44,011 nt of DNA. Origin: a virus. Below, in pieces: positions 13,525-44,011 of this stretch (within the stretch, counting starts at the first letter, position 1; each line of letters begins with the position of its first letter). The stretch spans positions 1 through 44,011 of IMG/VR virus record IMGVR_UViG_3300045257_000218; one strand, given 5' to 3'. Both the position numbers and the translations under genes were made by a program. The notes below the pieces were generated by a model, which saw only the letters and a list, made by a program, of their open reading frames with translations, did not search any database and had not been told where the DNA came from.

Positions 13525-13586
13525 GTGTAATGCTCCAGACACACAAAAGCCGCCGAGTACCCGCCCCGCTCGAAACACCCAGGAGC

Positions 13587-13661
13587 TGTCTAGGACCCCA
13601 GATGAGAGGAGCGGATACCCCGCGGCTTTTGGTAGTGTGTTCCATACTGAAGTCCTAGACA
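13587..13661. repeat. 10-bp perfect inverted repeat upstream of the O-like gene
   Basis: TGTCTAGGAC at 13587-13596 is the exact reverse complement of GTCCTAGACA at 13652-13661, with a 55-nt spacer. It sits in a 199-bp stretch (13525-13723) with no supported gene, just upstream of the O-like protein. It could be a paired protein-binding site or a hairpin in the leader RNA. Confidence 0.45.
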
Positions 13662-17807: not shown

Positions 17808-17967
17808 GTATCCCCTTTTTTGGCTAGAGGTTGGGCCTTGCGGCCGGGAGGATTCCAGCCTTTCGCGTATCGACGATGAGGAGGTTACGCGGCACGGTTT
17901 CCCGTGCCCTCCCATGGCTATATCCGGACCCGTTTCCACCCCCTAAGTGTCTATCTCGGCCCGAACG

Positions 17968-18017
17968 CTAGGGGTGTTAGCATAGCCTATGCTAACACGC
18001 AACCACAAAACCCCTAG
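17968..18017. promoter_or_regulatory. Nested perfect palindromes upstream of ssb
   Basis: An 11-bp perfect inverted repeat (GTGTTAGCATA at 17974-17984 and TATGCTAACAC at 17988-17998, 3-nt centre) is nested inside an outer 8-bp inverted repeat (CTAGGGGT at 17968-17975 and ACCCCTAG at 18010-18017). The inner element has the size and symmetry of a repressor operator. It lies in the 206-bp gene-free stretch (17808-18013) before ssb, where an internal promoter is likely. Confidence 0.6.
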
Positions 18018-19221: not shown

Positions 19222-19824
19222 CTACGGACGTCGACTCTGCAAAGCCGCGTCTTCATCTCCGTCTTCCCCGTCGCTGTAGAGCGCGTCGGACGCGCTCTGG
19301 GGGAAGTCCCCTCCGTCGAACGAATCCTCGGCATCGATGTCCTCGCCCGAAGCGTCGTCTCCGACCATGGCGCCCATGCCCACCATCGCGGCGTAGGCCT
19401 CGATGTCCTCGGGCTGGATCCCGATCACGTTGACGGGCCCCTTGTCGCGGGTGGTTACCAGATCGTAGCGCCACGAATCCGCCGCCGAGAACGAATCCTC
19501 AGTTTGGGCCATGGTCTGAGCCATCTTCGGCAGGGTGGTCAACGCGAGATTCGCCGACTTGGCGTCTCCGAACGGCCCGCAGTAGGCCGACTGCGCTTTG
19601 TCGATCGTCCCGTCGGCCTCCTGATCGTAGGGCACGAGCCCCACACCGGCAGTGATCCGGACGTACAGCGCCGCGCCGTCCGGAATGGCGTCACCCGCGA
19701 ACGTCACGAATCGCGGCGAGGCGGACTCCCGCACGCTCTTGACGAGCTTGCGCGCCAGACGCTTGGCGTGCTTGTGGAGGGGATGACGCTTCGAGGCCTT
19801 GCCATTGTCTTTCTTGGTTCCCAT
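19222..19824 (-). CDS. Hypothetical protein with acidic tail, 200 aa
   Basis: The start at 19824 (MGTKKDNGKASKRHPLHKH) has GGAG 9 nt upstream. The first 40 residues are very basic, the middle is globular (FVTFAGDAIPDGAALYVRITAGVGLV), and the last 50 are acidic (DDASGEDIDAEDSFDGGD). No family recognised. The gene has a long structured leader (19825-20061), so its expression may be controlled at the RNA level. Confidence 0.6.
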   Translation of the reverse strand: MGTKKDNGKASKRHPLHKHAKRLARKLVKSVRESASPRFVTFAGDAIPDGAALYVRITAGVGLVPYDQEADGTIDKAQSAYCGPFGDAKSANLALTTLPKMAQTMAQTEDSFSAADSWRYDLVTTRDKGPVNVIGIQPEDIEAYAAMVGMGAMVGDDASGEDIDAEDSFDGGDFPQSASDALYSDGEDGDEDAALQSRRP

Positions 19825-19904
19825 GTGTGGTTCTCCAGTTTTGTGTGAATAGGGGACAGAGGGCACTTACCTATCGGTGCTTTTTGTTCCGCAGGGTGTC
19901 GTAT

Positions 19905-20050
19905 CCCCTGAGAGATCCACCTACCAAAGCAGATCGAAACCTCTGGGGCTTCGAGGCTTGGCCAAGCGGGGCCCCGAGATTTCGGGGAGACCACTGGGGT
20001 AGGTGGACCTTCCAGGGGACGCCAGGGATAGCCTTGCGGCCTCCTGGCGT
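19905..20050 (-). ncRNA. Candidate structured RNA in a 237-nt leader
   Basis: On the minus strand an 8-bp hairpin (ACGCCAGG/CCTGGCGT) with an inner GCC-GCAA-GGC tetraloop is followed by a long closing stem. That stem is CCCCTG/CAGGGG plus a symmetric 5-nt internal loop plus TCCACCTACC/GGTAGGTGGA, enclosing about 72 nt. Inside are a CCCCGA/TCGGGG hairpin and a GCTTGGCCAAGC palindrome. The gene-free stretch lies between the DUF3761-like gene and the 200-aa gene. It matches no class I recognise. Confidence 0.45.
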
Positions 20051-20061
20051 GCCCTAGGCGC

Positions 20062-20331
20062 CTACTTTCGCGGGGGGTTGAGGGGGACGGCGCGTCCGCG
20101 GATTGGCGAGCCGTCGGCCCACGCTTTGACACCCCCGTGACCGGAGCAGGCCCCCTTGTGCGCGGCGTGTCGCGAGCGCCACTCCGTTCCATCGTTGCAG
20201 GTGGCCAGCACACGGACGTCTCCGTCGGAGATGGTGGGGGTCTTGTCCTTCGGGGTGGGGACGGCCGACAACACCAGCGTCGGCGTCAAGAACAACAGAG
20301 CGAAAGCAGTGGACAAAATGAATTTGATCAT
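20062..20331 (-). CDS. Exported DUF3761-like protein, 89 aa
   Basis: A signal peptide is clear: MIKFILSTAFALLFLTPTLVLSA with an Ala-type cleavage site near residue 23. The mature part has C-N-D-G-T...R..H.AHKGACSGHGGV, the core of the small secreted DUF3761 family found in bacteria. The mature protein is about 65 aa with two Cys that could form a disulfide. Such proteins are periplasmic with unknown function. Its presence in a phage early operon suggests envelope modification or a moron-like gene. Confidence 0.65.
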   Translation of the reverse strand: MIKFILSTAFALLFLTPTLVLSAVPTPKDKTPTISDGDVRVLATCNDGTEWRSRHAAHKGACSGHGGVKAWADGSPIRGRAVPLNPPRK

Positions 20332-20444: not shown

Positions 20445-20467
20445 AGGTGCTTATGATTAAAGCACCT
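20445..20467. repeat. 8-bp inverted repeat (hairpin)
   Basis: AGGTGCTT and AAGCACCT are perfect reverse complements separated by 7 nt. The element overlaps the stop of the 41-aa gene. No U-run follows on either strand, so a processing or attenuation hairpin is more likely than a strong terminator. Confidence 0.45.
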
Positions 20468-20591
20468 ATTTGCGAACGTCAATTCCTTTTTGCATTTTCT
20501 TTCCCAGGCGCCAAAACAGATATCGAGCGTACAGCCAAGATCCAAGGCATCCACCTAGCAATGGCCATGCCCAATCAATGAAGGTTCTCAT
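20466..20591 (-). CDS. Small TM protein, 41 aa
   Basis: The ATG is two bases after the upstream stop, with GGAG 10 nt upstream. The product MRTFIDWAWPLLGGCLGSWLYARYLFWRLGKK has one membrane segment followed by a basic cytoplasmic end. It is missed by 60-codon cut-offs. Function unknown. Confidence 0.6.
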   Translation of the reverse strand: MRTFIDWAWPLLGGCLGSWLYARYLFWRLGKKMQKGIDVRK

Positions 20592-33116: not shown

Positions 33117-33373
33117 TGCCTCCGTGCCTTGGCTGTGGGGCCAAGGCCAGGCAGCCCCACAACCCCGAATGCCACGAAGACTTCAGTGTTTCCAAGCAGA
33201 TGCGTTGGCAGCGCAGGAAGTTGCTTGAGGGGAAATGTGTGAAATGCGGCGGTGAGATAGATCGGCCTGGACGCCTAGGCGAAAGGGCCAATCTATGTCT
33301 GAAATGCTGTATCAAGCGGCGCAAGAATGTAAGTCAAGTATCAAAAAACTCCTTGCCACCAGATACGCAGTGA
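33116..33373 (+). CDS. Small zinc-ribbon protein, 85 aa
   Basis: The start overlaps the scaffold stop (TAATG). It has CLGCG at 4-8, a basic linker, and KCVKCGGEIDRPG...NLCLKCC: two or more zinc knuckles. Such a protein within a capsid block is unusual. Function unknown. Confidence 0.6.
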   Translation: MPPCLGCGAKARQPHNPECHEDFSVSKQMRWQRRKLLEGKCVKCGGEIDRPGRLGERANLCLKCCIKRRKNVSQVSKNSLPPDTQ

Positions 33374-36519: not shown

Positions 36520-37332
36520 ATGGCAGCGGCAAATTGGTATCCGAATGGAGCGGGCGGCACAGTCGGCGATCCGCTGGCTACGCTGCCCAATCTCTATACT
36601 CCAGGTACCATCTGGTATGTAGGGAACGCCGGCACGGACGCCGCCGCGCCCGCTGGCAAGCGACGTGAGAAGCCGCTTAAGACCACTGGGCAGGCGAATA
36701 CGAATGCCGCGGCGGGAGACATGATCGTTTACCTCTCTGGCTTCACGGAGACGCTGGGCGCCTCAGTGGTGATCTCAAAGAGCGGCCTCTGGTTCGTGAG
36801 CGAGGGCACAGGCTCCTCGCGCGCGCGGCTGACTGCTGGCACAGGCGCTGGTGCCATGCTGGATATCACCGGACAGAGCGTGGTGCTCTCCAACCTGTAT
36901 TTCCCGGCGTCTACCGCCGTCCCCGTTGCGCGCGTGCGGACGGCTGCCGCTGACACCAATATATTGACCTGTTATTTCGAATGCGGCACCAATGACGTTG
37001 GTAGTGCAGTTGGAATTATAACTGGCGCATCTGCGATATATATCGATGACACCGTATTTATTTCGACCGCTGGATCTCCTGCTGCGCAGCCCACGATTGG
37101 GATTAATGTAATTAACGCCGTCACAGGTCTGATTATGGATAATGTCATTTTTGATGGTGGCGTATCCGGGTGGTCATCGTCCGCTCTTCTTGGAACGGCG
37201 GCAATTACTAATCTTCGAGCTACTAACATTGACCTAATGAATGATTCGGTTGCTTCGTTTGCAAGCGGATCTAATGGCAAGTTCTACCTGCGCAACAAAT
37301 CCGGTAACTCTGAGGTGATCTGGACGCCGTGA
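36520..37332 (+). CDS. Second right-handed beta-helix protein, 270 aa
   Basis: AGGAG lies before the ATG. The protein starts MAAANWYPNGAGG and has a beta-helix-like pattern of repeats (SGLWFVSEG, QSVVLSNLYFPAS, GLIMDNVIFDGG). Length and repeat style differ from the first beta-helix protein. It overlaps the next gene by GTGA. Likely another capsid or tail decoration component. Confidence 0.55.
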   Translation: MAAANWYPNGAGGTVGDPLATLPNLYTPGTIWYVGNAGTDAAAPAGKRREKPLKTTGQANTNAAAGDMIVYLSGFTETLGASVVISKSGLWFVSEGTGSSRARLTAGTGAGAMLDITGQSVVLSNLYFPASTAVPVARVRTAAADTNILTCYFECGTNDVGSAVGIITGASAIYIDDTVFISTAGSPAAQPTIGINVINAVTGLIMDNVIFDGGVSGWSSSALLGTAAITNLRATNIDLMNDSVASFASGSNGKFYLRNKSGNSEVIWTP

Positions 37333-40300
37333 ACTATGGTGGCAGTAGAAAGGGCAAGAATGATTACCTGCGAAGCTGTAGCTTCTGCGGGCGTCTTGTC
37401 CTGCGCTCTACCATGGTCAAAAAGGACGGATTCCTGGCATGTAAAGACGATGCCAGGGGACGCGAGCGTTTAACACTCGACAAAGAGAATGCGGCGAATC
37501 TAAAACGCCGTCGCTGGAATCCGGCCAGAGATCGTCTGTCAGACCGTGATAACGAACAGGACGTCTATCAGGCCGACGAAGCCGCGCTGTTCAATTTGAT
37601 CCTACAGAACCCGTTTGTGCCGTCGGTAGGCAACAATGGACGCGGGTCTGCGCTGGCGCCTGCGAACGCTGTCACTGCGGCTATTCATGCTAAGACGATG
37701 TATGACATCATCGCGGAGAATAAGCGCCCAGGGGCATGGATTGCCTCGGCGACATCTTTGATGTCATCGGCTGGAAACCTGATTCTTTCCAGCCAAAATC
37801 TTACCGACACCAAGAGCACGAATGCATTGTACGGATCGATCCCGTCTGTAACCCTTACGGGGCAATATACCGCCTTTGATGCGGGGTGGTGTGGTCTTGG
37901 GCTGCTTCGTTGCTATCAAGTGACCGGCTCCCAGGGCTATATTGCAGGCGCCAGAAGGATCGCTGGTTTTATTCGTAATCTACAAGCAAGCTCATTTGCA
38001 ACCATAGCCCCAACGTCTCTTGATGCCGCTGGTACGTCTCCATACTATACTGGATTTTGGAGTAATTCGATAGAGAACATCAGCGGGACGCCTCACTTCG
38101 ATCACTATCAAGACCCGATTAATCTGATAGCATTGGAGTTTTTAAGGTTACTGCTTTCTATTGATGGCGACGGAACCTATGGCGCTGATACAACCATATC
38201 AGGGTTCTTTACCAGGATTCCTCAGGTCGCCCTGTCACAGATGATAAGCGATGCGATGTTGCCATGGAACAATGGCCTGTTTAATTCCACTACAAATACT
38301 ACCGTAAATGGACTTTCGGCGACGACGCCATTCTGGAGATTTAACCCCTACCCTACTAACAAGCAGTCGCCGGTGTTCATTGCCCCAGGCACTGGCTCGT
38401 GGGAGCTAAATAACAATTGCATCAGCGTGAGAAGCTGGGCATACGGTATTCATGCCATCTGGGCAAGCGAGGGCGTTTCTAGCAGGATCACATCTCTTTG
38501 GAATTACCTGCAATCAGCCAAACCGAATCCGTCATTTGCGACTCCTGTCAACACAGGACCGAGTGTACTTTTTTCGTCCCAGACTGGAACATTTTATCCA
38601 ACGCTGGCACCGCCTCCGTTTATAGATGTAACGACAGGCCAAATGTCGCTATCTTCTACATATGATTGGGTGTCCTGGGGCCTTCTGTCTCCAATCCAGT
38701 CAGCCAAGAATTCTGCTCAGCTTAAGGCTGCGCGCGTCGTGCTAGGACAGAAGAAATATCGCATTTATAATAGCTCAGATCAGACTGTGCCAACTGACTT
38801 CATAGGCATGTATGGTACCTCCGGGCTTTCCTTCCAGACGGCTGCCAGCGCCGGAAACGCTGCCCCTGGTGATGCAGCTATCGTGGAATACAACTATCGC
38901 CAGGCGCCGATTCTATTCCCTATGCAGGATCCCGTTCCGGCAGCAACCGGCGTTTCTCCGGTCATCTTGTCTGGCTCGTCATCAGACTTACCGTCCCCGC
39001 CGCATCCCGAGAGCCTGGCCTATTGGATGGACGGACAGGACATGGATGGTCAGAGAAATGCCACGCTGACCGACGGTGCGCCGTCGACCTTTATTGTCAA
39101 CAAAGGCACGCGCGGCATCGGATGGTCTCCCGTCGGCATAGCGCCTCCAATCACTCGCCTTTCTGGCGGCTTCGGAAGCATAGAATACTTGGGCGCTGCC
39201 ACCGGTAGAATGGCGACACCAGCAGGCTCTAGGCTCGGCCACACAACTGTGCTGGTCTTGGTTCTGATGAGGACCGCCGTCCTTGGCGTCACGAACGTTT
39301 ATTGTGACGGGTTGGATGTGAATGGTCGCATTCAGGTAAATGACGGCGATGGCAATGATATGCTGCTTGTGGCAGGTGCAGGAAGCGCCCTACAAGCATT
39401 TAACATGCTCACGATTGGGAAATTCAATGTAATAACTCTTTATATGGATGGGACTGGATCTTCGTTTTGTGATATAAACTTTCCATTCGCTGACCAGGGC
39501 CATAGCGGCGTTGGCAATAGCGGCACTGACAGCGGATTCACCGGTATAACAATTGGCGACAGCCTGGGTGTTGATAAGCCATTCCAGGGTAAATTTGCTG
39601 CTTTGTTGTGCTGGAATAGTGCATCCACGGCTAGTCTGCCTGTTGCTCAGGATGTTTGTGATTTCGTGTCAGATTACTATTCCGTGGGGTGGCCGAAGAC
39701 GGCTCTATCTCACTTTTCGTTCCCTCCAGTTGCCACATCGCCGCTCCCGATTCATTCGTCAGATGTTGTAGCCTTTATGGGAGACAGCATCTCCACGTCT
39801 ATTCCAGGTGCCCGATGGTTTGATCCTGCTGTTACGACAATAAACTCTAAACTGTCATCCCCGATTACAGTGGTTCCCGCTGGCGTAGGCGGTAATACCT
39901 TCGCTGACCTGGTTGCCCGGGTCAATGCGGATATAATCAACCACATTCCTAAGCCTACGGTTGTTGTAATAGAATGTGGCGAAAATGACCTATTCCAAAG
40001 AATATCATTGGATACAATCATAACGAATGCGGAGACACTTGTTCTTAATCTACGGGCAGGTATCCCGAATGTCCGCATTGCAATGAATTCTATTCTCTGC
40101 CGCAACGAATATTATCCCGATCCGATCAAGCGCCAGGTTGACCAGATAAATAAAGCGATAGAATTTGTGTGCGCGCAGGTGGGCGCCACGTTCGTAGATA
40201 TTCGCTCTGCGCAACAGGCGTTCGAGGCTGCAAATAACTTCCCGCCTCCTGGGAATCCGCACGATCCTGGGCCGCCGCCGGGCAACAGGGCCCTTCTAAC

Positions 40301-42708: not shown

Positions 42709-44011
42709 TGGCTTCAGGCCCAGTTGATTTTCAGGCAGGACAGTCGGACGAAGAGCCGCTTGGAGGCGCTCGTCCGCTGACTTGTAACATGGTCGTAGAT
42801 TCCCAGGGCACCATGCGCGTTCGTCCTGGCATCTCTACCTGGACAGATTTCCCGTCCACAATACCAAATGCCAGCCCGGTCGTTTCGATGGTGGTATGGC
42901 GGAACATGCTCGTCTATGTTACCCAAGATCGAAAGCTCTGGGTTGTGGACGTGCCAGGACATGTAACGGCCCTCTCAGATGACACGGCTCCCACTCAGCT
43001 AGACGGTTCCACTAGGCCAGTGGGGCTTCCGCTCAAGGCCAGGGTAGTGTTCGCTGGCGGCGGCGCTCCGCAGAAATGGGAAGGCGCCGGGCTCTCTGCT
43101 CGCCTACTGGGAAACAACACGGCACCGCCGCTTCCATCTGCCCCTCTGCCGCCTCCTACGACACACCTGGCATCGGTTGCTACGCGCCTCCTGGCTATCG
43201 ACAGATCTGTCACAGGCGCAGGTGCCGGGACCGTTTACTGGTCGAACACTCTCGATAGCGGCAACGAGGTATGGGACCCGGCAAACTTTCTAGAGGCATC
43301 TAGCAGGCCAGATAGGGCCGTGGCTCTCTATGACAATGCCAAGGAAGTTTTTGTCCTGGGAGAATCCACCACGGAGATGTTTCGGCCGGATGCAAATCAA
43401 GGGTTCGTTTCTGGTTTTTCTATGAATGCCGGCTGCGCGGCTCCATATAGCCCAATTAGATACGATGAGGATCTAACCTGGATAGCAGACCGACGGCGGT
43501 TCTTATTGTCCGGCGGCAGAGGATATACTGATATCGGCAAAGATGTCATGAATGGTTTCCTACAAAGCCAGGGTACATTATCGGATGCTTGGAGCTTCGA
43601 ACTTCGCTTTGCTCAATTCCGTCAGATTTGCTGGAATCTTCCTACAGCCGGCAGATGTTTCACGTGGAACAGAGATCATAGCAAATGGGGCGAATTTCGA
43701 AGCTTCTCATCCACTGGCTATCGGCCTCTGAATATATCTAGCTCAGTATTATGGCTGGATAATGATCGTAATATTAGTCTAGTCGGGCTGCCCACCGGTC
43801 AGATAGCTCAGTGGGATTCAACCGCAGTTACCGATCTTGGTCAGCCAATAAAGGCTGAAATCATTTCCGGATACCAAAATCGCGGTACACTTAACCGAAA
43901 AGCATGCAACCAAATCTCATTGTCTATTAAGCCAAATTCGCCTCCTGCCACCACGACGCTTCTTATATCATGGCGAGATGACGGAGGGGCATGGGGCCAG
44001 CCTATTGAGGC
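42708..44011 (+). CDS. P22 gp10-like packaged-DNA stabilisation / tail hub protein (N-terminal part)
   Basis: ATG overlaps the upstream stop (TAATG). The frame is open to the window end and resumes at base 3, giving 480 aa, close to P22 gp10 (472 aa). Core features match: VTWIAD-type LTWIADRRRFLLSGG, VLGESTTEMFRPD (P22: FGSSTIEYF) and CAAPYSPIRYDED. The protein forms the hexameric hub under the gp4 ring. It lies before the ejection protein genes, as expected. It is split only because the circular genome was linearised inside it. Confidence 0.8.
   Translation, partial: MASGPVDFQAGQSDEEPLGGARPLTCNMVVDSQGTMRVRPGISTWTDFPSTIPNASPVVSMVVWRNMLVYVTQDRKLWVVDVPGHVTALSDDTAPTQLDGSTRPVGLPLKARVVFAGGGAPQKWEGAGLSARLLGNNTAPPLPSAPLPPPTTHLASVATRLLAIDRSVTGAGAGTVYWSNTLDSGNEVWDPANFLEASSRPDRAVALYDNAKEVFVLGESTTEMFRPDANQGFVSGFSMNAGCAAPYSPIRYDEDLTWIADRRRFLLSGGRGYTDIGKDVMNGFLQSQGTLSDAWSFELRFAQFRQICWNLPTAGRCFTWNRDHSKWGEFRSFSSTGYRPLNISSSVLWLDNDRNISLVGLPTGQIAQWDSTAVTDLGQPIKAEIISGYQNRGTLNRKACNQISLSIKPNSPPATTTLLISWRDDGGAWGQPIE
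43885..44011. repeat. Terminal overlap copy 2 (circular contig)
   Basis: Identical to bases 1-127. Removing one copy leaves a circle of 43,884 bp in which the gp10-like gene is intact. Confidence 0.97.

What the first reader, a model, noticed from the sequence alone, without database searches (positions are those of the whole stretch)
19905..20050. Large structured RNA candidate with GNRA loop and multi-branch stem
A 16-bp closing stem with a symmetric internal loop encloses two further hairpins. A separate hairpin with a GCAA tetraloop lies just 5'. The amount of perfect pairing in 146 nt is well above chance, and the leader precedes a 200-aa gene of unknown role. It matches no riboswitch or ribozyme class I know.
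Basis: partly seen in the sequence, partly recalled or inferred. Interest (0 to 1): 0.75.

Follow-up and report, generated by a model that had tools for sequence, protein, structure and literature searches.

The report
Orphan RNA hairpin between phage genes
A real, very stable RNA fold sits between two genes at the start of a phage's DNA-replication operon; it has no detectable relatives and is most likely a cutting or protection site on the phage messenger RNA rather than a new riboswitch or ribozyme.

Summary
The structure is real. It belongs on the minus strand, which is the strand that codes there. The 146 nt fold at -88.3 kcal/mol (z -8.0 on the minus strand, -6.4 on the plus), and this is the strongest fold in the 44-kb phage genome. 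Anatomy on the minus strand: a GCAA-capped 8-bp hairpin (20050..20019), then a nearly continuous 20-pair closing helix with one A.C mismatch (20018..19998 / 19925..19905), around a 72-nt interior with two almost equally likely folds. It fills a 237-nt gap between an 89-aa DUF3761-like gene and a 200-aa orphan gene that heads the RadC/SSB/ERF/methyltransferase operon. No Rfam family matches. The predicted fold does not change access to the downstream ribosome site, and no U-tract follows, so neither a simple riboswitch nor a terminator is supported. The best reading is an intercistronic mRNA-processing or stability element, such as an RNase III-type site like those of T7 and lambda. A second long minus-strand hairpin in the same operon (13631..13544) fits this. 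Real but modest; function inferred.

The parts
20019..20050 (-). 5' hairpin: 8-bp outer stem, 4-bp inner stem (one G-U), GCAA (GNRA) tetraloop
   Evidence: probability 0.94 alone, about 0.75 in longer leaders
19998..20018 (-). 5' arm of closing helix (7 bp + A.C mismatch + 13 bp, 2 G-U)
   Evidence: (probability 0.84-0.98 in all contexts)
19905..19925 (-). 3' arm of closing helix
19926..19997 (-). 72-nt interior with two nearly isoenergetic folds: a three-way junction with hairpins 19994..19966 and 19958..19928, or one long irregular stem; contains the 12-nt palindrome GCTTGGCCAAGC
   Evidence: 0.54 versus alternative
19825..19904 (-). 80-nt linker with Shine-Dalgarno-like GGAG before the start codon; mostly not sequestered by the element
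19222..19824 (-). 200-aa downstream gene, basic N-terminus and acidic C-terminus, no family match
   Evidence: coding score 17.4
20062..20331 (-). 89-aa upstream ORF, signal-peptide-like N-terminus, weak DUF3761 match (below cutoff)
   Evidence: codon score is not positive (-2.6), so its status as a gene rests on the DUF3761 match and its ribosome-binding site
20445..20482 (-). sigma-70-like hexamers (TTGACG-18-AATCAT) overlapping the perfect palindrome AGGTGCTT-N7-AAGCACCT: possible repressible promoter of this transcript
   Evidence: promoter match alone is at chance level; palindrome 0 in shuffles

Best explanation
The element is a cis-acting structured segment of the phage's minus-strand early/replication polycistronic mRNA. 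It lies between the DUF3761-like cistron and the 200-aa cistron. The roughly two-turn closing helix would be cut by host RNase III (or, if uncut, would act as a block to exonucleases), so that the upstream mRNA ends in a stable hairpin and the 200-aa/RadC/SSB/ERF mRNA starts with a defined, protected 5' end. Shown: sequence, strong predicted fold, strand and gene context. Inferred: transcription across it, RNase III cleavage and the effect on stability.
For: Strongest fold in the genome, placed in a non-coding gap between co-directional ORFs. Closing helix of 20 pairs with one mismatch; R1.1 of T7, which drives maturation and protection of T7 mRNA, is an irregular hairpin, RNase III sites share no strong consensus, and a 12-bp stem can suffice (PMC8708148). 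RNase III sites are also known in lambda and T3 (PMC5371410). A second long minus-strand hairpin (13631..13544) lies in another gap of the same operon and is also better on the minus strand (stem score 57 versus 43). The RBS stays as accessible as without the element, and no U-tract follows.
Against: No homologues, so no covariation. RNase III selectivity cannot be judged from sequence. The fold is more elaborate than a plain RNase III hairpin needs. The strand preference of element A alone is modest (z -8.0 versus -6.4; its one mismatch would be a G-U on the plus strand). The host and its RNases are unknown.
Confidence: 0.42

Rival explanations
1. A regulated leader (riboswitch-like or protein-bound autoregulatory RNA) of the 200-aa gene: the bistable interior responds to a ligand or to the basic-tailed 200-aa protein and changes expression of the operon.
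For: It lies in the leader of that gene; the interior has two nearly equal folds (about 0.54/0.46); a GNRA loop is available for docking; the protein has a basic N-terminus.
Against: The element ends 80 nt before the start codon and predicted RBS access is the same with and without it (0.59 versus 0.58). No terminator follows. No conserved instances were found, unlike known riboswitches.
Confidence: 0.2
2. A stand-alone phage small RNA (packaging, decoy or antisense type) released from the operon transcript.
For: Compact, highly structured, 146 nt with defined ends; GNRA hairpin; 12-nt self-complementary segment that could allow dimers.
Against: No promoter or terminator of its own was found around it; no relative in phages with related terminases.
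Confidence: 0.13
3. A DNA-level inverted repeat (protein-binding palindrome, cruciform or replication feature, or a decayed mobile element) whose RNA fold is incidental.
For: Both strands fold well (z -6.4 and -8.0) and single-stranded DNA does too (z -5.7). The cumulative GC-skew minimum of the window falls near 20 kb.
Against: Only one copy in the genome. No flanking target duplication seen in the sequence. G-U pairs favour the coding strand in the A and B stems (9 versus 1, though the stems were picked on that strand). The skew minimum is confounded by the change of gene direction.
Confidence: 0.15
4. A chance or functionless stable fold in a high-GC gap.
For: The stretch is 64% GC, and the closing stem score is reached in 1 of 145 whole-genome shuffles, so it is not impossible by chance.
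Against: z -8.0, with an independent hairpin beside it; top-ranked of the 146-nt windows; placed exactly in an intercistronic gap.
Confidence: 0.1

Closest known systems
RNase III processing sites of T7/T3 early mRNA (e.g. R1.1) and lambda RNase III sites
   Same: Intercistronic or leader position in a phage polycistronic mRNA; a long imperfect helix; more than one such element in one operon
   Different: Larger and branched, with a preceding GNRA hairpin; cleavage not shown; no shared sequence; different phage lineage
5' stabilising stem-loops of bacterial mRNAs
   Same: Very stable hairpin upstream of a start codon, leaving the RBS free
   Different: Not at a known 5' end; more complex fold
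Riboswitches and other Rfam cis-regulatory leaders
   Same: Multi-branched fold in the 5' leader of a gene
   Different: No Rfam match, no conserved instances found, no visible expression platform

Membership tests
RNase III-type phage mRNA processing site | Helix long enough for RNase III (12 bp with a tetraloop sufficed in an R1.1 derivative) | tested here: met
   20 pairs over 21 positions, probability 0.84-0.98; criterion from PMC8708148
RNase III-type phage mRNA processing site | Located in or between cistrons of one transcript | tested here: inconclusive
   237-nt gap between two minus-strand ORFs at the head of the replication operon; position fits, co-transcription itself not shown
RNase III-type phage mRNA processing site | Cleaved by RNase III with staggered ends | not testable with these tools
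   Needs biochemistry or 5'-end mapping
Rfam families (riboswitches, ribozymes, phage RNAs) | Score above the family's gathering threshold | tested here: not met
   0 matches at gathering score; best sub-threshold matches are chance (E 0.63 and worse)
Riboswitch / regulated leader | Expression platform: RBS sequestration or terminator | tested here: not met
   RBS accessibility 0.59 with and 0.58 without the element; no intrinsic terminator with a U-tract after the element. Ligand-dependent refolding not testable here
Conserved structured RNA class | Compensatory base changes in homologues | tested here: inconclusive
   No homologue found
tRNA / tmRNA | ARAGORN match | tested here: not met
   0 genes
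Intrinsic terminator | GC-rich hairpin followed by a U-run | tested here: not met
   5' hairpin is followed by CCCC and the closing helix by AUACGACA on the minus strand; the scanner's one minus-strand call inside the element (19954..19934) has a poor tail, and terminator-like calls are at chance number

The most novel reading that the evidence does not exclude
A new class of phage structured RNA: a bistable three-way-junction element with a docking GNRA hairpin that switches expression of the replication operon, possibly bound by the product of the 200-aa gene it precedes, with a second, pseudoknot-capable RNA (13661..13544) later in the same operon.
Probability: 0.1. Interest if true: 0.7.

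Novelty: new member of a known kind. Interest (0 to 1): 0.33.

Why it matters
It documents that an uncultivated phage with no close sequenced relative carries a strongly structured RNA at the head of its replication operon. If it is a processing site it extends the T7/lambda style of mRNA control to another phage lineage; if it is a switch it would be a new RNA class. At present it is a well-supported structure with an inferred role.

Tried and rejected
Relatives of the 200-aa gene, RadC, ERF and DUF3761 proteins in IMG/VR: none. The 200-aa protein in GTDB genomes and phages: none; one weak partial plasmid match at E 0.1. DNA patterns of the closing stem: 0 in IMG/VR with 22 fixed bases; 6 in IMG/VR and 2 in GTDB genomes with shorter patterns, none matching the covariance model, so chance or unrelated hairpins. 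blastn against phages and plasmids: none. Covariance model R1 (built from the single known sequence, so only able to find fairly similar relatives) over terminase-related records, including a 47-kb relative with 56-58% terminase identity and MW202796: only the window itself. Intrinsic terminator, tRNA and transposable element were considered and not supported. RBS sequestration was tested and not supported. The terminase relatives hold no copy of the 200-aa gene.

Full report
What the window is. It is a 44,011-base virus record with identical 127-nt ends, so probably a complete phage genome. Genes at about 23-43 kb on the plus strand include terminase and portal. A minus-strand operon running from about 21 kb downward holds the DUF3761-like ORF, a 200-aa gene, RadC, SSB, ERF recombinase and a C5-cytosine methyltransferase. 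The closest terminases found are 56-59% identical, so there is no close relative in the searched collections.

The observation. The 146 nt at 19905-20050 fold to -88.3 kcal/mol on the minus strand (z -7.98) and -85.1 on the plus strand (z -6.40). Ranked by energy corrected for GC it is first of all 146-nt windows scanned. In a coarse z-score grid, which does not line up with the element, it ranked lower; after refining the top candidates it is first (-7.1; next best -5.7). A gapless stem search of the minus strand gives two stems above all others: element B at 13.6 kb (score 57) and this closing helix (51). In 145 shuffled genomes the best stem reached 51 once and 57 never.

Strand and anatomy. 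From 5' to 3': hairpin 20050..20019 with a GCAA loop; closing helix 20018..19998 with 19925..19905, made of 18 Watson-Crick and 2 G-U pairs and one A.C mismatch; and a 72-nt interior. The helix is predicted in every context tried (0.84-0.98) and the hairpin at 0.74-0.94. The interior splits about evenly (0.54 for the two hairpins) with one long stem.

Context. The element fills a 237-nt gap between ORFs 20331..20062 and 19824..19222, which is exactly 200 aa with GGAG ahead of its ATG. Frames running through the gap score as non-coding (-24.9 and -11.2). Upstream, a perfect 8+8 palindrome at 20467..20445 overlaps promoter-like hexamers; this could be the operon's regulated promoter, but the promoter match itself is at chance level.

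Relatives. None was found by protein, DNA pattern, blastn or covariance model in IMG/VR, the phage collection, plasmids or GTDB genomes. Rfam has no match.

How it probably works. The fold leaves the downstream ribosome site as open as it is without the element (0.59 versus 0.58), and no U-run follows it, so neither a simple translational switch nor a terminator is supported. A 20-pair helix in a cistron gap is of a size that RNase III can cut; in T7 the R1.1 hairpin drives mRNA maturation and protection (PMC8708148), and lambda and T3 have RNase III sites as well (PMC5371410). A second long minus-strand hairpin in the same operon (13631..13544, before the methyltransferase) makes a general role in operon RNA processing or stability more likely than a one-gene riboswitch. 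Over the two elements' stems, 9 wobble positions pair on the minus strand and 1 would pair only on the plus strand. This favours RNA over DNA function, with the caveat that the stems were chosen on the minus strand. Cleavage, transcription and stability effects are all inferred.

Verdict. A real, orphan, strongly folded intercistronic RNA; most likely a processing or stability element; not shown to be a new RNA class.

Noticed in passing
13544-13661 (-): Second strongly structured non-coding stretch: 28-position stem 13631..13604/13571..13544 (23 WC, 3 G-U) interleaved with a fully paired 15-bp stem 13661..13647/13601..13587 (13 WC, 2 G-U), i.e. a pseudoknot or a two-state switch, in the gap upstream of the methyltransferase gene.
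   Followed up: partly
20445-20467: Perfect operator-like palindrome AGGTGCTT-N7-AAGCACCT overlapping a sigma-70-like -10 on the minus strand.
   Followed up: partly
17935-18014: Perfect hairpin GTGTTAGCATA-GCC-TATGCTAACAC in the gap upstream of the SSB gene.
   Followed up: no
37311-37456 (+): Strongly folded stretch (z about -5.6 to -7.3) at the end of the gene ending at 37332 and the start of the next large plus-strand gene.
   Followed up: no
1-127 and 43885-44011: Identical 127-nt ends: complete, circularly assembled or terminally redundant genome.
   Followed up: no
33254-33299: Long palindromic hairpin in the 344-nt gap between structural genes.
   Followed up: no
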